In this document: positions 8,498-17,071 of the stretch, piece after piece
Position numbering within the stretch: position 1 is the first letter of the stretch
How the letters are laid out: the number at the start of each line of letters is the position of its first letter
Source of the DNA: a virus
Reading direction: 5' to 3' (one strand)
IMG/VR virus record: IMGVR_UViG_3300006749_000138
Location: 1 to 23,700 of that record
Length of the DNA stretch: 23,700 nt
Notes under the pieces: generated by a model
The model's database searches: none
Seen by the model: the letters and a program-made list of their open reading frames with translations, nothing else
Told to the model about the DNA's origin: nothing
Position numbers and translations under genes: made by a program

Positions 8498-8642
8498 ACA
8501 AGACCTCAAAATGAGGCTCATCGAAGATGGGTTACGGAAAAACTATAATAAAAAGGAGGATGTTATTACCGTCTTCCTTGCATTACAAGAACAAAACTTT
8601 ATACTAGGTAACAATTTAAAAGAACTACTACAATACTTATAA
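8487..8642 (+). CDS. Small hypothetical protein between exonuclease and RNR, 51 aa
   Basis: Short, mostly helical protein (VEQDLKMRLIEDGLRKNYNKKEDVITVFLALQEQ...). No family recognised. The start is uncertain: TTG 8487 gives an 11-nt overlap with the exonuclease and a natural-looking N-terminus MTVEQDLK; ATG 8427 (71-nt overlap) and ATG 8511 are alternatives, and none has a clear ribosome-binding site. The stop overlaps the RNR start (TAATG), indicating translational coupling with nucleotide metabolism. No function is proposed. Confidence 0.6.
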   Translation: MTVEQDLKMRLIEDGLRKNYNKKEDVITVFLALQEQNFILGNNLKELLQYL

Positions 8643-10015
8643 TGTCTACTCAATTCATTTCTCGCACCGGCAGAGTGCAATCTTGGATCGACGATCCTAC
8701 ATCAAGGCTGCCTGTATCTTGTACCATCTTTGTTGTTGAAGACAGCATGGAAGGGCCAGAGGGTATAGAAGCTAGCTGGAGGTTTGCATCCCATGCACTG
8801 CGTTATGGTGCAGGATGTGCTATCCACCTGTCTAAACTTAGACCCGAGGGACACACAAACGACAAAGGACTGGTAGCTACAGGCCCAGTCAGCTTCGGTA
8901 AGATATACTCAGCTCTCAACGAAACACTTCGTAGAGGTGGGGCTTACAAGAACGGAGCAATAGTTCTGCATCTTGACTTAAATCATGCAGACATACTAAA
9001 ATTTATAACTACACCCAGACAGGAACTACCATGGGTGAAGCGTTGCGTTGACATAACACCAGCAATGTGGCGTAACTGTAACAGAGAAACAAAGGAGGCT
9101 TTACTACATGGAATCAAATCAGGAGACATCTGGCTCAACAAAATTAAATACGACGGAGAAGGGGCTCGTATCTATGGAAACGTATGCCTTGAAGTATACT
9201 TGCCCTCACGTGGAACATGCTTGCTACAGCATGTCAATCTCGGTGCCTGTTCAATCGACGACCTTCAAAAGGCTTTCGTATCAGGCATGTCCGAGTTGTG
9301 TGATCTCCATGGCAGGACAGGTGTTGGAGAATCTGGAGAATACCTTACCTCGGAAGTCGACAGACAAGTTGGGCTTGGAGTGCTCGGTCTTGCCAACTTC
9401 CTCAGACAATACAGTATCTCGTACGAGGACTTTGGGGAGGCACTTAGACGAGTAAACCAAGGGCTCTCCGCAAACGATGCACCGGGCATAGCAGCTTGGG
9501 GATTACAACACGCTATCTTTGAAGCATCACAGATAGCAAGAGAACATAACATGGTAAGGGCGTTCGCTATTGCACCCACTGCCAGTTGCAGCTATCGCAG
9601 TAAAGACCTAGACGGCTATACATGCACACCCGAGATAGCACCACCAATAGCTAGAACCGTAGACAGAGACTCCGGCGAGTTCGGAGTAGAGAGAGTTGAA
9701 TACGGCGACGTTGAGATTGCAAGTGAAGTAGGATGGGACGCATATAAGCGTGTAGCAGACGAAATCATCACAATGCTCGATAGGACAGGATTGCTTCATG
9801 GCTACAGCTTCAACAGCTGGAGCGACGTAGTAACTTACGACGAAGCGTTTATCGAAGAGTGGCTAGCTAGTCCACAGACTTCGTTATATTATTCCCTCCA
9901 AGTCATGGGCGATGTACAAGATAAGTCTGATGCTTACGCAGCGTTAGGTGATATTGATGTCGACGATTACTTGGCAGGCATTTTAGATAAACCCCAATGC
10001 GACTGCGAACAATGA
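8642..10015 (+). CDS. Ribonucleotide reductase large (alpha) subunit, minimal class I type
   Basis: Reduces ribonucleotides to deoxyribonucleotides for phage DNA synthesis. At 457 aa it is far shorter than E. coli NrdA (~760): the N-terminal ATP-cone and helical domain are absent. Active-site residues are visible: Cys27 (LPVSC, equivalent to C225), the Asn180/Cys182/Glu184 triad (NVCLE, equivalent to N437/C439/E441), and Cys193 (equivalent to C462). PTASCS resembles the phosphate-binding PTGS region. A Tyr416-Tyr417 pair in SLYYSLQ sits where class I enzymes carry the radical-relay pair Y730/Y731, which class II lacks. The tail ends CDCEQ rather than the usual spaced Cys pair. The next gene overlaps by ATGA and looks like the beta subunit, strengthening class I over the B12-dependent class II label often given to such genes. 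Confidence 0.9.
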   Translation: MSTQFISRTGRVQSWIDDPTSRLPVSCTIFVVEDSMEGPEGIEASWRFASHALRYGAGCAIHLSKLRPEGHTNDKGLVATGPVSFGKIYSALNETLRRGGAYKNGAIVLHLDLNHADILKFITTPRQELPWVKRCVDITPAMWRNCNRETKEALLHGIKSGDIWLNKIKYDGEGARIYGNVCLEVYLPSRGTCLLQHVNLGACSIDDLQKAFVSGMSELCDLHGRTGVGESGEYLTSEVDRQVGLGVLGLANFLRQYSISYEDFGEALRRVNQGLSANDAPGIAAWGLQHAIFEASQIAREHNMVRAFAIAPTASCSYRSKDLDGYTCTPEIAPPIARTVDRDSGEFGVERVEYGDVEIASEVGWDAYKRVADEIITMLDRTGLLHGYSFNSWSDVVTYDEAFIEEWLASPQTSLYYSLQVMGDVQDKSDAYAALGDIDVDDYLAGILDKPQCDCEQ

Positions 10016-13783: not shown

Positions 13784-13959
13784 TGGCTGATTATAAACAG
13801 TTAACTATCGACGACGAGTTCAAAAGGCTTAAAAAAATTAAAGATGAGGGCCGTCGTTATTCACCCAATGAGGTTGATACAAGGGGAGGATCTCCCGGTC
13901 AAATCTTCAAAAGGGTTGAGAACTTTAAAAAGAAAAACAACAACTCAGTAAACGCATGA
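13783..13959 (+). CDS. Microprotein 3, 58 aa basic
   Basis: Unrecognised 58-residue basic protein (ADYKQLTIDDEFKRLKKIKDEGRRY..., ending KKKNNNSVNA) with a Gly/Ser turn in the middle. It starts in a TAATG and ends in an ATGA shared with hli1. It is too short for domain assignment. Confidence 0.6.
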   Translation: MADYKQLTIDDEFKRLKKIKDEGRRYSPNEVDTRGGSPGQIFKRVENFKKKNNNSVNA

Positions 13960-14087
13960 CACACAACCACAACGGCCAGAAATGGCACCCAGCTGAAGAG
14001 CTGAACGGCAGACTAGCCATGCTAGGATTCGTAATTGCTGTTGGTACTTACATCACAACTGGACAAATTATCCCCGGAATATTATAA
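13956..14087 (+). CDS. hli: High-light-inducible protein 1 (Hlip), 43 aa
   Basis: Single-helix chlorophyll-binding protein of the CAB/ELIP/Hlip family; in cyanobacteria these bind chlorophyll and carotenoid at photosystem II and protect it under light stress. The signature AEELNGRLAMLGF, continued by VIAVGTYITTGQIIPGI, carries the Glu and Asn/Arg pigment and ion-pair residues in one membrane helix. The short N-terminus (MTHNHNGQKWHP) is typical of phage forms. Translation is coupled upstream (ATGA) and downstream (TAATG) to a second hli. Together with psbA downstream, it supports photosynthesis during infection. Confidence 0.92.
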   Translation: MTHNHNGQKWHPAEELNGRLAMLGFVIAVGTYITTGQIIPGIL

Positions 14088-14194
14088 TGACACCCGAAGC
14101 AGAAAGATTTAATGGCTGGGCAGCGATGCTTGGTTTTATAGCAGCAGTTGGAGCATACGCAACAACAGGACAAATCATACCCGGTATTTTCTAG
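14087..14194 (+). CDS. hli: High-light-inducible protein 2 (Hlip-like), 35 aa, altered motif
   Basis: A second, even shorter Hlip-like protein directly behind the first. AERFNGWAAMLGF aligns with the AEELNGRLAMLGF of hli1, and the C-terminal halves (AVGAYATTGQIIPGIF versus AVGTYITTGQIIPGIL) are nearly the same, so it looks like a tandem duplicate. The Arg of the conserved E-x-x-N-G-R motif is Trp here, which should remove the Glu-Arg ion pair used in helix pairing. It starts at TAATG and ends in TAGTG. Confidence 0.82.
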   Translation: MTPEAERFNGWAAMLGFIAAVGAYATTGQIIPGIF

Positions 14195-14346
14195 TGCCAA
14201 AAGGAGCCGGCAAAAAATACTCTGGCAAACAAATGAAGATTGCTAGAGTCGCACCACCACGTGACAAGATCACAGGAGCAGATTTTAAAGGACTAAAAAA
14301 TGGCAAGAAAAAGAAAGGGAGTAAGCCTGTCTCTCGGAAGAGGTGA
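14194..14346 (+). CDS. Microprotein, 50 aa basic, GTG start
   Basis: Lys/Arg-rich 50-residue ORF (PKGAGKKYSGKQMKIARVAPP..., ending KPVSRKR) starting with GTG on the stop of hli2 (TAGTG). The last 47 nt overlap the next ORF in a different frame. It is collinear with its neighbours and not recognised. Confidence 0.5.
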   Translation: MPKGAGKKYSGKQMKIARVAPPRDKITGADFKGLKNGKKKKGSKPVSRKR

Positions 14347-14551
14347 GAAAAGTCGCAAAGGCGGACTAACAGCTAAAGGTAGAGCCAAGTACAATCGTGC
14401 CACTGGCTCTAAACTCAAAGCTCCACAGCCCGGAGGAGGGGCTAGAAAGAGGTCATTCTGTGCCCGTATGGGTGGCATGAAAGGCCCAATGAAAAAACCA
14501 AACGGCAAGCCTACAAGAAAGGCTCTTGCTTTACGTAGATGGAAATGCTAA
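14300..14551 (+). CDS. Conserved small basic marine-phage protein, 83 aa
   Basis: 83 residues. The core RKGGLTAKGRAKYNRATGSK and the following LKAPQPGGGARKRSFCARMGGMKGP and RKALALRRWKC resemble, from memory, a small-protein family common in marine phages, often encoded near virion genes; I cannot name the family securely. The Cys in SFCARM and the C-terminal Trp-Lys-Cys recur in that family. Its start lies 47 nt inside the preceding ORF rather than at its stop. Function unknown; the basic, Gly-rich composition suggests nucleic-acid contact. Confidence 0.75.
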   Translation: MARKRKGVSLSLGRGEKSRKGGLTAKGRAKYNRATGSKLKAPQPGGGARKRSFCARMGGMKGPMKKPNGKPTRKALALRRWKC

Positions 14552-14721
14552 TGGCTAAGAAAAAAAAGATTAACAAACCTGTCAAAGACTTAAAAGATTT
14601 TGATGATCCTAATTCTCAGATCAACAAGAACAATTATAAGTTAGATCAGATAGGTAAAAAGAAAAGAAACAAATATGTAATGAACCATGATTTCTTTAGC
14701 GATAACGGCAACGTAGTATAA
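14551..14721 (+). CDS. Microprotein, 56 aa basic
   Basis: 56 residues, Lys-rich N-terminus (MAKKKKINKPVKDLKDFDD) and a more mixed C-terminus (YVMNHDFFSDNGNVV). ATG 14551 is on the previous stop (TAATG) and is preferred to an in-frame ATG four codons upstream. Unrecognised. Confidence 0.6.
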   Translation: MAKKKKINKPVKDLKDFDDPNSQINKNNYKLDQIGKKKRNKYVMNHDFFSDNGNVV

Positions 14722-14915
14722 TGGCTATTATTTTTGGTATTGATGGTTCCAAGCAGAACCGCAAGGGATCTAAGATTGCTATGGATCTTACACCTAGAAA
14801 CGAAAAGAATCTAAACAAAAGAATAAAAATGGATCCTTTCACAGGTGGCGATGAACTTGATAAAATAATCAAAGAGCAACGCAAACGTAAAAAAAACATG
14901 AAAGGTAAATCGTGA
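14721..14915 (+). CDS. Microprotein, 64 aa basic
   Basis: 64 residues beginning MAIIFGIDGSKQNRKGSK, then alternating charged residues, with a C-terminal helix (DELDKIIKEQRKRKKNMKGKS). It starts in a TAATG and ends in a TGATG junction. Unrecognised. Confidence 0.6.
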   Translation: MAIIFGIDGSKQNRKGSKIAMDLTPRNEKNLNKRIKMDPFTGGDELDKIIKEQRKRKKNMKGKS

Positions 14916-15085
14916 TGCGAAAAACAAAAAAGATACGACCCTTTGATGAGCAAGATACAAAACTTGCTAGGGGTAAAACTGTTAAACAACAAGCTAAGAC
15001 CGATGTACTTAACATGGTCAAGACACTAACTAAGCAAAATAAACATGTTGAAGCCCAAGCTCTATTCAAAGAGTCATTCAAATAA
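14915..15085 (+). CDS. Microprotein, 56 aa, FDEQ-type paralogue
   Basis: 56 residues. IRPFDEQDTKLARGKTVKQQ aligns with NSFDEQNTQDAGGKKAKRKR of the 13595-13783 protein, pointing to duplication within the cassette followed by divergence. The C-terminal part forms a probable helix (VLNMVKTLTKQNKHVEAQALFKES). It is joined to neighbours by TGATG and TAATG. Function unknown. Confidence 0.62.
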   Translation: MRKTKKIRPFDEQDTKLARGKTVKQQAKTDVLNMVKTLTKQNKHVEAQALFKESFK

Positions 15086-15147
15086 TGCACAAGAAAACTA
15101 AAAAAAAGGGCGGCAAGAAATGTGGCTGCCCACACGGAGGTAAGTAA
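15085..15147 (+). CDS. Microprotein, 20 aa Lys/Gly/Cys peptide
   Basis: 20 codons: a Lys-rich start (HKKTKKKGGKK) then CGCPHGGK. The Cys-x-Cys-x-x-His is suggestive of metal binding but too short to claim. It is flanked by TAATG junctions on both sides, which is the main reason to accept it. Confidence 0.45.
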   Translation: MHKKTKKKGGKKCGCPHGGK

Positions 15148-15311
15148 TGGGTAAGTTATGTCCTCGCGGTAAGGCAGCAGCCAAACGCAAATTCAAAGTA
15201 TACCCCTCTGCATACGCTAACGCTTACGGTGTTAAGGTATGTAAAGGACAAGTTAAAGCCGGTGGCAAAAAGAAAGCTGCACCCGGATATTCACGTAAGA
15301 AAAGAAGGTAA
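15147..15311 (+). CDS. Conserved small basic marine-phage protein, 54 aa
   Basis: 54 residues with KLCPRGKAAAKRKFKVYPSAYANAYGVKVCKG, a motif that I remember from many aquatic phages and some large viruses (a DUF5872-like pattern; the name should be checked). The two Cys, in LCP and VCKG, are conserved there. The C-terminus is a basic tail (SRKKRR). It starts and ends in TAATG junctions. Function unknown. Confidence 0.72.
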   Translation: MGKLCPRGKAAAKRKFKVYPSAYANAYGVKVCKGQVKAGGKKKAAPGYSRKKRR

Positions 15312-15460
15312 TGGCATTAACTAAACGCCAACAAGATACTCTTAAAAAACATTCCAAACATCACTCTGCCAAGCATATGGCTATGATGCGTAAGGATATG
15401 AGAGCAGGCATGAGCTTTTCAGCAGCACACAAAAAAGCACAAAAGGCAGTAGGCAAATGA
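15311..15460 (+). CDS. Conserved small helical His/Lys-rich protein, 49 aa
   Basis: 49 residues: [48 protein letters not shown] recall similar LTKRQ...LKKHSKHHT...HM..M proteins in marine phages, of unknown function. It is helical, cationic and rich in His and Met. It starts in a TAATG and ends in an ATGA shared with the next ORF. Confidence 0.7.
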   Translation: MALTKRQQDTLKKHSKHHSAKHMAMMRKDMRAGMSFSAAHKKAQKAVGK

Positions 15461-15708
15461 GTTTAAGACGATGGTTTAAAGAAGAATGGGTAGACACCAA
15501 GACCGGCAAGCCTTGTGGCCGCCAAAAAGGGGAGAAACGCAAAGGCTATCCAGCTTGCCGTCCGTCGAAACGCGTTTCTTCCAAGACTCCTAAGACTACT
15601 GGTGAGATGTCAAAAGGCGAAAAGGCCAAGTTTAACAGATCAAAGACCAGTAGCCGTAGGATCAACTACAATCACAAACGACGAAATAAATTAAAAATTA
15701 GAAAATGA
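15457..15708 (+). CDS. Conserved small basic protein, 83 aa, upstream of psbA
   Basis: 83 residues. The N-terminal [20 protein letters not shown] followed by [11 protein letters not shown] is a motif I remember from marine phage and large-virus small proteins (W-V-D-x-K-T-G-K-P-C-G-R, then Y-P-x-C-R-P). The remainder is Lys/Arg/Ser-rich. Its stop overlaps the psbA ATG (ATGA 15705-15708), so psbA translation depends on this ORF. Function unknown; a nucleic-acid or metal role is possible from the two Cys. Confidence 0.75.
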
Positions 15709-16745
15709 TTACAGCTCAAACACAAACTCTAACTAGACAAGAAAACAACTGGCAAAGGTTCTGTGAGTGGGTCACATCTACCGACAACCGCCTCTATGTG
15801 GGGTGGTTCGGTACATTAATGATACCCGCACTCTTAACAGCAGCAACATGTTTTATCGTAGCATTTATCGCTGCACCTCCCGTCGACATTGACGGCATAC
15901 GTGAGCCAGTTGCAGGCTCTTTGCTATTTGGTAATAATATAATCTCAGGAGCAGTAGTACCTAGCTCTAATGCTATAGGTCTACACTTCTATCCTATATG
16001 GGAAGCAGGCACATTAGACGAGTGGCTATACAATGGTGGCCCTTATCAGCTTGTTGTCTTCCATTTCCTCATTGGTATCTCAGCATACATGGGTCGCCAG
16101 TGGGAACTCAGTTACAGATTAGGCATGCGTCCTTGGATTGCAGTAGCTTACTCTGCACCTGTATCAGCAGCGTTCGCTGTATTCCTTGTGTACCCGTTCG
16201 GTCAAGGGAGTTTCAGTGATGGTATGCCTCTTGGTATTAGTGGTACTTTCAATTTTATGTTCGTATTCCAAGCAGAGCACAATATACTTATGCACCCTTT
16301 CCATATGGTCGGTGTTGCTGGGGTATTCGGTGCAGCTCTTTTCTCTGCTATGCATGGAAGTCTCGTTACTAGCTCTCTCGTTCGCGAGACAACTGAACTC
16401 GAGTCTCAGAACTATGGGTACAAGTTCGGTCAGGATGGTGAAACCTATAATATTGTCGCTGCTCATGGCTATTTCGGCAGACTGATTTTCCAGTATGCGT
16501 CATTCAATAACAGCCGTGCTCTTCATTTCTTCCTTGCTGTCTTCCCTGTTGTTGCTATATGGATCACCTCAATGGGTATATCAACAATGGCCTTTAACTT
16601 AAACGGTTTCAACTTTAACCAGTCAATCGTTGATGCTAACGGCAAAGTTATACCTACATGGGCTGACATAGTAAACAGACAGAACCTTGGTATGGAAGTA
16701 ATGCACGAAAGAAACGCACATAATTTCCCTCTAGACTTAGCATAA
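15705..16745 (+). CDS. psbA: Photosystem II D1 protein
   Basis: D1 reaction-centre protein, 346 aa (numbering here is D1 standard +2). Redox and metal residues are present: Tyr163 (YZ), Asp172, Glu191, His192 and His200, the Ser of YASFNNS at the QB site, and the C-terminal Mn ligands in [15 protein letters not shown]. Gln132 corresponds to the Gln/Glu130 switch that separates D1 forms. The protein stops exactly at the mature C-terminal Ala344, so the usual ~16-residue extension removed by CtpA is missing. Replaces rapidly turned-over host D1 in the thylakoid so that photosynthesis continues during infection. Fairly divergent from host copies (e.g. [26 protein letters not shown]). Translation is coupled to the upstream ORF. 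Confidence 0.98.
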
Positions 16746-16750
16746 GTCCA

Positions 16751-16812
16751 CGTCCGTTCATCCTTCGGGACGCATGAGATCTGACCATGGAACGGGGGTC
16801 AGGTACTGAGGT
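16751..16812 (+). promoter_or_regulatory. Glutamine-riboswitch-like pseudoknot ('Downstream-peptide' RNA motif)
   Basis: Non-coding leader between psbA and a 33-codon ORF. Stem 1: CCGTTC (16754-16759) pairs with GAACGG (16790-16795). Inside it is a TTCG-capped hairpin (TCC 16761-16763 with GGA 16768-16770). A second 8-bp stem, ATCTGACC (16779-16786) with GGTCAGGT (16797-16804), encloses the 3' strand of stem 1, giving an H-type pseudoknot. The CGTTCATCC...GGGACG...GGAACG order and the short peptide gene downstream match what I know of the Downstream-peptide/glnA class that binds L-glutamine in cyanobacteria and cyanophages. The ribosome-binding GAGG follows at 16808. Not checked with a covariance model. 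Confidence 0.75.
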
Positions 16813-16817
16813 AACTT

Positions 16818-16919
16818 ATGTCTCAAGTAGAACTACAAGCTCGAATCAAAGAGCAAAGAGATCATGCTAGAGCTATGAAACTTAAGTATCGTGGCATCGC
16901 ATACACACCCAACAGGTAA
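16818..16919 (+). CDS. Riboswitch-linked downstream peptide, 33 aa (DUF4278-like end)
   Basis: 33 codons with a GAGG ribosome-binding site 6 nt before the ATG. The C-terminal half MKLKYRGIAYTPN resembles the DUF4278-type 'YRG-x-x-Y' motif common in short cyanobacterial and cyanophage proteins and typical of peptides behind the Downstream-peptide RNA motif. The N-terminal half is a charged helix (VELQARIKEQRDHARA). Its synthesis is presumably controlled by the leader, in response to glutamine as the nitrogen signal. The stop codon TAA lies inside the 5' strand of a tRNA-like stem. The molecular role is not known. Confidence 0.7.
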   Translation: MSQVELQARIKEQRDHARAMKLKYRGIAYTPNR

Positions 16920-16955
16920 GTGGCACACTGGGAGGTTCGAGTCCTCCCTTACCTA
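16914..16955 (+). other. tRNA-like minihelix (acceptor stem plus T-arm)
   Basis: AGGTAAG (16914-16920) is exactly complementary to CTTACCT (16948-16954). The second strand directly abuts a perfect 5-bp T-stem GGAGG/CCTCC with canonical 7-base T-loop TTCGAGT (16936-16942). This is the 7+5 bp geometry of a tRNA top half, with an A at the discriminator position (16955) but no encoded CCA. Only 10 nt (16921-16930) stand where D- and anticodon arms would be. It could be a decayed tRNA or a deliberate RNase P-type processing signal; it is not a complete tRNA. Confidence 0.6.
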
Positions 16956-16957
16956 TT

Positions 16958-17013
16958 GGCTTTTGCCCTCTACGGAGGATACCTTAAGCCGTCATGACGG
17001 TGGGATAGACCAC
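16958..17013 (+). other. Run of RNA hairpins upstream of the capsid gene
   Basis: Three possible hairpins in succession: GGC-TTTT-GCC (16958-16967); CCTC (16967-16970) with GAGG (16975-16978) closed by the very stable TACG (UNCG) tetraloop, which competes with the first; and the 12-base perfect palindrome CCGTCATGACGG (16989-17000). GTGG (17000-17003) can also pair with CCAC (17010-17013). No T-run follows, so this is not an obvious terminator. It is likely structured 5' leader RNA of the capsid message or part of the riboswitch/minihelix unit. Confidence 0.45.
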
Positions 17014-17071
17014 AAAAAACTGGCCAAAAATTTCAGTACTGAGAAAGTAAACACATAATACATTCTTAGAA
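17014..17071 (+). promoter_or_regulatory. AT-rich capsid upstream region with palindrome, possible late promoter
   Basis: AT-rich stretch before the capsid ATG containing a perfect 10-base palindrome TCAGTACTGA (17032-17041) and ATAATAC (17056-17062). The capsid start has no clear Shine-Dalgarno sequence. A late promoter for the phage polymerase would be expected in front of gene 10, but its consensus is not known to me, so the assignment is by position only. Confidence 0.25.

What the first reader, a model, noticed from the sequence alone, without database searches (positions are those of the whole stretch)
16914..16955. Acceptor/T-arm minihelix lacking D- and anticodon arms
A 7-bp stem abutting a 5-bp stem with the canonical TTCGAGT loop is exact tRNA top-half geometry and unlikely by chance. 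RNase P is known to accept such minimal substrates; cleavage at its 5' side (before 16914) would cut inside the end of the peptide ORF and remove its stop codon. Alternatively it is a phage tRNA that lost its middle.
Basis: partly seen in the sequence, partly recalled or inferred. Interest (0 to 1): 0.72.

Follow-up and report, generated by a model that had tools for sequence, protein, structure and literature searches.

The report
Swappable mini-tRNA in cyanophage capsid leader
Just in front of the main capsid gene, ocean viruses that infect photosynthetic bacteria carry a conserved folded RNA whose first part is a stripped-down tRNA, a whole tRNA or a different hairpin, probably a signal that lets host enzymes cut out and protect the capsid message; the cutting itself has not been tested.

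Summary
Window 16914-16955 is a tRNA top half: 7-bp acceptor, 5-bp T stem, TTCGAGT loop. None of 1000 simulated windows contained one. The window is a T7-like cyanophage contig, and the element is the first part of a leader RNA in front of the major capsid gene (MCP). The leader's core (16956-17015) has four covarying or invariant helices. A model of it matches 22 of 23 related phage genomes, strongly in 16, there always upstream of MCP. Directly before the core there is almost always one of two module types. One is tRNA-like: a mini-tRNA with T-loop U54/C56/R57/A58 and a covarying acceptor, an intact tRNA-Gly(UCC), or a tRNA-Gly with a decayed D arm. The other is an unrelated-looking 10-bp hairpin with an almost invariant 15-nt loop. 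The two types have replaced each other at least 12 times on the MCP tree. Best reading: the module is a boundary and processing signal, cut by host RNase P and/or RNase Z, that gives the MCP mRNA a defined, structured 5' end. Conservation and exchange are shown; cutting is inferred. The attP, terminator and passive-pseudogene readings are disfavoured. I found no Rfam family and no paper describing the leader.

The parts
15705..16745 (+). psbA (photosystem II D1), gene upstream of the leader
   Evidence: ORF; psbA in the same place in P-SSP7, S-TIP37 and others; used as query that retrieved host psbA at up to 87% identity
16752..16804 (+). Glutamine-II riboswitch aptamer, upstream neighbour, not part of the leader core
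   Evidence: Rfam RF01704, 50.4 bits, E 1e-9
16818..16919 (+). 33-aa ORF with DUF4278 start (MKLKYRGIAYT); its TAA (16917-16919) lies inside the 5' acceptor strand
   Evidence: sequence; Pfam PF14105 E 7e-7
16914..16955 (+). 5' module, type T1 (mini-tRNA): acceptor 16914-16920/16948-16954, linker 16921-16930, T stem 16931-16935/16943-16947, T loop 16936-16942, discriminator-like A16955
   Evidence: sequence; chance test; conservation and covariation
16913..16914 (+). predicted RNase P cut (inferred only)
   Evidence: geometry of acceptor/T-arm substrates (PMC11143913)
16955..16956 (+). predicted RNase Z cut after the discriminator-like A; the downstream RNA would start UUGGC (inferred only)
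   Evidence: conserved junction module-A-UUGG
16956..17015 (+). core of the MCP leader RNA: P1 16958-16965/16983-16990, P2 with UACG loop 16967-16970/16975-16978, GATA bulge 16979-16982, P3 palindrome CCGTCATGACGG 16989-17000 (competes with the P1 base), P4 17000-17003/17010-17013 with loop GATAGA
   Evidence: 65-sequence alignment A2: 90.9% of cells paired, covariation 0.333 vs 0.109 shuffled, 0/500; model R1 matches 22/23 phage genomes
17033..17042 (+). perfect palindrome TCAGTACTGA; relatives have palindromes of other sequence after P4
17072..18241 (+). major capsid protein gene, the gene served by the leader
   Evidence: ORF; 46-72% identity to T7-like cyanophage MCPs; tblastn

Best explanation
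The minihelix is the exchangeable 5' module of a conserved leader RNA of the major capsid gene in T7-like cyanophages. It marks the boundary between the upstream message (here psbA, riboswitch and small ORF) and the MCP message. Host tRNA-maturation enzymes most likely recognise it as a minimal tRNA precursor: RNase Z cutting after the discriminator-like base (16955/16956), RNase P cutting before the acceptor (16913/16914), or both. The upstream RNA would then end in a compact helix and the MCP mRNA would start with the folded core (UUGGC, P1-P4), helping to protect both ends from exonucleases. In phages with the second hairpin type, that hairpin would do the same job. Shown: fixed position, structure conservation, module exchange. 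Inferred: cutting, identity of the enzyme, protection.
For: Position: nearly every MCP locus with enough upstream sequence has the leader, and model R1 matches 22 of 23 phage records, strongly in 16, there upstream of MCP. Structure: T loop in 63 distinct T1 loci has U54 62, C56 63, R57 63, A58 62 (the search pattern favoured such loops, but every non-T2 locus except L153 fitted it); own acceptor strands pair better than all 5000 permutations among 24 distinct mini types; acceptor plus T stem is most often 11-12 bp, the tRNA distance used by RNase P (PMC11143913). Real tRNAs at the same site: tRNA-Gly(UCC) in NATL1A-7, L025, L064, L179, and another cloverleaf in L216/L217; D-arm-decayed tRNA-Gly in L061, L062, L078. 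No encoded CCA follows any T1 module. Exchange: T1 or T2 fills the site in all 85 loci of the MCP tree (4 assigned by eye), 15 changes, at least 12 forced by starred branches. T2 has 10 bp all with compensatory changes and folds as 10 + 2 bp in SS120-1, again about 12 bp to a loop. Cyanobacteria have RNase P, RNase Z and the 5' exonuclease RNase J (PMC10989914). RNase P cleaves acceptor/T-stem/T-loop hairpins (PMC11143913).
Against: No RNA end has been mapped. T2 lacks a canonical T loop, so one enzyme for both modules is an assumption. Position 55 of the T loop is G in 36 of 63 T1 loci, not the U usual in tRNA. L074 keeps only 5 of 7 acceptor pairs and some other T1 acceptors are interrupted by mismatches. 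The distance from acceptor to UUGG varies by 1-3 nt. In the P60-like group the module lies about 100 nt from the core. RNAalifold on the sequence alignment recovers only the T stem. The MCP tree cannot separate module exchange from recombination of the MCP gene itself.
Confidence: 0.45

Rival explanations
1. The module is a structural boundary or stabiliser only: a compact helix that protects the 3' end of the upstream mRNA or helps the core fold, while cutting, if any, is done by RNase E, RNase III or another enzyme that does not read tRNA features.
For: T2, with no T loop, does the job in more loci than T1 (88 vs 63); the middle of T1 is poorly constrained.
Against: The T loop is held to tRNA rules (C56 63/63, A58 62/63), and whole tRNAs occupy the site; a plain stabiliser needs neither. 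The T2 loop is also almost invariant.
Confidence: 0.25
2. tRNA mimicry in cis: the module binds a tRNA-reading host factor (synthetase, EF-Tu, ribosome) to tune MCP translation, without being cut.
For: A conserved acceptor/T arm directly upstream of the capsid gene; whole tRNAs at the same site.
Against: No conserved acceptor sequence that could be an identity element: at least 24 different 3' strands. No anticodon in mini forms; exchangeable with T2.
Confidence: 0.12
3. A decaying phage tRNA gene without present function.
For: Intact, D-arm-decayed and mini forms exist at the same site.
Against: Compensatory acceptor changes, constrained T loop, no free loss among the 85 tree loci.
Confidence: 0.05
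4. A DNA-level element such as a phage promoter or protein-binding palindrome, the minihelix being incidental.
For: Invariant GGTGGGATAGACCACA block in most loci, palindromic P3 and a further palindrome downstream; single match in the window.
Against: P1, P2 and P4 covary as RNA helices (GTGG/CCAC, GTAGG/CCTAC and GTGTG/CACAC), which a DNA signal would not need.
Confidence: 0.05
5. A phage attachment site (attP) copied from a host tRNA gene.
For: Related phages such as P-SSP7 and S-TIP37 carry tRNA-derived attP sites (PMC8776855).
Against: [quoted passage not shown] T-arm matches occur in 10 of 12 host genomes; the four examined are tRNA-Trp with a different acceptor. No match was sought beyond these genomes.
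Confidence: 0.01

Closest known systems
Model RNase P substrates (acceptor stem, T stem, T loop; PMC11143913)
   Same: Same geometry: about 12 bp of stacked helix capped by a T loop, no D or anticodon arm.
   Different: Those are laboratory constructs; this is a natural element in a phage mRNA leader, it has a segment of roughly 8-20 nt between acceptor and T arm in most mini forms, and cleavage is untested.
mascRNA / MEN-beta tRNA-like RNA (Rfam RF01684)
   Same: A tRNA-like element inside a longer transcript that (own knowledge) RNase P and RNase Z cut out, fixing the ends of the neighbouring RNAs.
   Different: Mammalian lncRNA 3' end, different sequence and size. Only the S-TIP28 module gives a sub-threshold match (E 4.4).
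tRNA punctuation of polycistronic RNA in mitochondria (own knowledge)
   Same: tRNAs between coding regions serve as cutting signals for mRNA ends.
   Different: Here one site per genome, mostly reduced tRNAs, and replaceable by a non-tRNA hairpin.
RNase III processing sites of T7 early and late mRNA (own knowledge)
   Same: Same phage group; processing gives discrete, stable mRNAs with structured ends.
   Different: Other enzyme class and structure. RNase III recognition of T1 or T2 was not tested.
Armless mitochondrial tRNAs (own knowledge)
   Same: tRNA-like RNAs that lack D and/or T-side arms and are still processed.
   Different: Those keep an anticodon; the T1 mini forms do not.

Membership tests
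tRNA | 7-bp acceptor and 5-bp T stem with T loop U54/C56/R57/A58 | tested here: met
   sequence; T-loop table
tRNA | D arm and anticodon arm with anticodon | tested here: not met
   10-nt linker only; ARAGORN and Rfam find no tRNA
tRNA | aminoacylated and used in translation | not testable with these tools
   no anticodon, so not expected for the window copy
Minimal RNase P substrate | about 12 bp of acceptor plus T stem capped by a T loop | tested here: met
   12 bp in the window; mode 11-12 over T1 loci
Minimal RNase P substrate | cut at the 5' end of the acceptor by RNase P | not testable with these tools
   needs in vitro cleavage or 5'-end mapping
RNase Z substrate | acceptor/T arm, discriminator, no encoded CCA | tested here: met
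   no CCA follows any T1 acceptor
RNase Z substrate | cut after the discriminator | not testable with these tools
   needs biochemistry
mascRNA-menRNA (RF01684) | match to the Rfam model at gathering score | tested here: not met
   no match in the window; best related match 21.5 bits vs 42.5 needed
attP site in a tRNA gene | exact match to a host tRNA segment | tested here: not met
   12 host genomes, only T-arm matches with 1-2 mismatches; the four examined are tRNA-Trp
[quoted passage not shown]
   psbA, riboswitch and small ORF lie upstream; known attP sites are elsewhere (PMC8776855)
Intrinsic terminator | GC-rich hairpin followed by a T run | tested here: not met
   scan finds none at 16914-16955; ATTGGC follows
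Any Rfam family (core) | match at E <= 1 | tested here: not met
   only Glutamine-II in the window; no match on the cores of 11 related loci at E <= 5

The most novel reading that the evidence does not exclude
A phage mRNA is punctuated by the host's tRNA-maturation enzymes through a module that evolution has repeatedly rebuilt: whole tRNA, reduced tRNA, or a non-tRNA hairpin (T2) that mimics the same 12-bp-to-loop geometry for the same enzyme. T2 would then be a new kind of substrate for RNase P or RNase Z, and the leader a new RNA family controlling capsid expression in abundant ocean phages.
Probability: 0.3. Interest if true: 0.85.

Novelty: new variant of a known kind. Interest (0 to 1): 0.7.

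Why it matters
Capsid protein is needed in bulk late in infection, and these phages infect Prochlorococcus and Synechococcus across the oceans; I found no account of how they set capsid mRNA level and stability. The element gives exact, testable cut sites in phages that can already be engineered (S-TIP37 and P-SSP7 were used in PMC8776855). The exchange of tRNA and non-tRNA modules at one site is a natural experiment on what RNase P or RNase Z will accept, and shows tRNA top halves standing alone in phage genomes. The core is also an RNA family that could be added to annotation pipelines.

Tried and rejected
1. attP reading: host genomes were searched for the T arm; hits in 10 of 12, the four examined are tRNA-Trp with a different acceptor, and the known attP of this phage group is elsewhere.
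2. Intrinsic terminator: none at the site.
3. Phage promoter at GGTGGGATAGACCACAA (it resembles the start of T7 class III transcripts, from memory): single match in the window, but P4 varies by compensatory change, so RNA structure is the better reading.
4. T2 as a host-derived motif: model R2 finds nothing in 13 cyanobacterial genomes and only the MCP leader in phages, apart from one weak hit in S-TIP28.
5. Acceptor covariation by RNAalifold: only the T stem is recovered because MAFFT misaligns the acceptor strands; the swap test was used instead.
6. Literature: searches for the leader, for cyanophage tRNA-like elements and for capsid mRNA processing found nothing relevant. Sullivan 2005 is not held. 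The S-SRP01 paper reports no tRNA genes although T2 and the core are there.
7. L153, an MCP locus without a module, looks like a deletion or chimeric contig and was not pursued.

Full report
WHAT IS THERE. The window comes from a virus record of 23,700 bases with the gene order of T7-like cyanophages: phage-type RNA polymerase, scaffold, psbA, major capsid protein (MCP) and tail genes. Between psbA and MCP lie a Glutamine-II riboswitch (16752-16804), a 33-aa ORF with a DUF4278 start (16818-16919), the minihelix (16914-16955) and a further 116 bases before the MCP start codon. A strict search for tRNA top halves finds this site only, and 0 of 1000 simulated windows has one. Folding energy alone is unremarkable (z -1.75), so the case rests on comparison.

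IT IS CONSERVED AND IN ONE PLACE. A sequence search with the interval finds 35 phage records, nearly all cyanophages. In the representative records inspected the match lies directly upstream of MCP; in one, S-TIP28, the matching piece is the riboswitch. A motif from the downstream part recovers 120 IMG/VR stretches. An independent survey anchored on the MCP protein rather than on the RNA finds the leader in nearly every locus with enough upstream sequence; exact regular expressions miss some copies mainly because the last helix has changed by compensation.

THE CORE. Window 16956-17015 is a structured RNA. On 65 distinct sequences, 90.9% of cells pair, the covariation score is 0.333 against 0.109 for shuffles (0 of 500), and sliding the partners destroys it. 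P2 pairs in 99.6% of cells with many double changes and usually ends in a UACG-type loop. P1 covaries at several pairs. P4 appears as GTGG/CCAC, GTAGG/CCTAC or GTGTG/CACAC around GATAGA or a close variant. P3 is invariant and palindromic and shares two bases with P1, so these two helices may compete. A covariance model (R1) gives a match in 22 of 23 phage records, the exception being a pelagiphage. In 16 of them the match is strong (E 1e-4 or better) and lies upstream of MCP. In the P60-like and MPP-C relatives it is weak (E 0.0016 to 0.026) but at the right place. The S-CBP2 match (E 0.35) is on the other strand and not convincing; there a P2-like piece is visible by eye. Rfam has no family for it.

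THE 5' MODULE. Directly before the core sits one of two module types: 63 distinct loci with a tRNA-like module (T1) and 88 with a hairpin (T2); one contig (L153) has neither. The T1 set contains intact tRNA-Gly(UCC) (NATL1A-7, L025, L064; also L179), another cloverleaf (L216/L217, called tRNA-Leu by ARAGORN, identity uncertain), tRNA-Gly copies with an intact anticodon arm but a decayed D arm (L061, L062, L078), and mini-tRNAs with the acceptor, often one short hairpin, and the T arm. In these 63 loci the T loop has U54 in 62, C56 in 63, a purine at 57 in 63, and A58 in 62, while position 55 is G in 36 and T in 27. The search pattern asked for such loops, so the figure is partly built in; what carries weight is that every non-T2 locus except L153 fitted it. 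The acceptor strands differ widely (GAGTA/TACTC, GCTAAG/CTTAGC, ACTGAT/ATCAGT, GACTG/CAGTC, GCTTG/CAAGC), and each 5' strand fits its own 3' strand better than others: summed score 118.5 against at most 111 in 5000 permutations. Acceptor plus T stem is most often 11 or 12 bp and no CCA follows. For the window's own type, the nearest contigs keep all 7 pairs, the next group 6 of 7 with a changed linker, and L074 5 of 7.

T2 is a 10-bp helix, every pair showing compensatory change (0.831 against 0.296 shuffled), with a nearly invariant 15-nt loop CACCUCRRWGUMGGA. Folding of SS120-1 closes two further pairs inside it, giving again about 12 bp to a loop. T2 occurs only in the MCP leader, apart from one weak hit in S-TIP28, and is absent from 13 cyanobacterial genomes. 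On a tree of 85 MCPs, all loci have T1 or T2 (four T1 cases were assigned by eye), and the label changes 15 times, at least 12 by well supported branches. Recombination of MCP against its leader could inflate that number, but not the fact that the site is always filled in that set.

HOW IT MOST LIKELY WORKS. A site that accepts a whole tRNA, a reduced tRNA or a T2 hairpin, always just before a folded leader of the capsid gene, looks like a boundary signal. [quoted passage not shown] Cyanobacteria have RNase P, RNase Z and RNase J (PMC10989914). The simplest model is that tRNA enzymes cut at one or both ends of the module; the upstream RNA would then end in a stable helix and the MCP mRNA would start with UUGGC and P1. 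A cut only on the 3' side would spare the stop codon of the small ORF. Every step after 'conserved and exchangeable structure' is inference. That T2 is handled by the same enzyme is the weakest link.

ALTERNATIVES. attP is disfavoured: the integration sites of this phage group match the first half of tRNA-Leu and lie downstream of the integrase gene (PMC8776855), and the matching host T arms that were examined belong to tRNA-Trp. A terminator is disfavoured. A passive pseudogene is disfavoured by covariation and by the near absence of loss. A plain stabilising hairpin and tRNA mimicry without cutting remain open.

KNOWN OR NEW. It works like a tRNA punctuation signal or mascRNA, but membership was either not met (mascRNA model) or not testable (cleavage). 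I found no description of this leader in Rfam or in the papers searched; the library is partial, so novelty is provisional.

Noticed in passing
window 17033-17042 and the 60 nt after P4 in related loci: A perfect palindrome of changing sequence follows the core: longest palindrome in 60 nt averages 10.9 vs 6.3 in shuffles, and 79% vs 10% reach 10 nt. Sequence varies but self-complementarity through the centre is kept, as for RNA dimerisation or a symmetric hairpin; unexplained.
   Followed up: partly
window 16752-16919: Glutamine-II riboswitch followed by a 33-aa ORF with a DUF4278 start; the riboswitch is also found upstream of the leader in several relatives.
   Followed up: no
L221 (P-SCSP1k, MPP-C clade) 1406-1428: Only the P2/GATACC part of the core is recognisable and no T1 or T2 module is seen; a GATCTAAC/GTTAGATC hairpin stands in front.
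   Followed up: no
L229 (P60), last 200 nt before MCP: The T1 module overlaps the end of the scaffold gene and can be drawn with four arms, like a nearly complete tRNA.
   Followed up: no
L014 (S-TIP28) 1761-1801: The module gives a sub-threshold Rfam match to mascRNA-menRNA (21.5 bits, E 4.4); suggestive as analogy only.
   Followed up: no
window 13956-15708: Between scaffold and psbA: a high-light-inducible-like ORF (13956-14087; Pfam chlorophyll-binding match E 0.0024, below cut-off) and a run of small lysine/arginine-rich ORFs, one matching DUF5872.
   Followed up: no
window 8642-10015: Ribonucleotide reductase ORF of 457 aa; its best Pfam match covers only part of the barrel domain.
   Followed up: no
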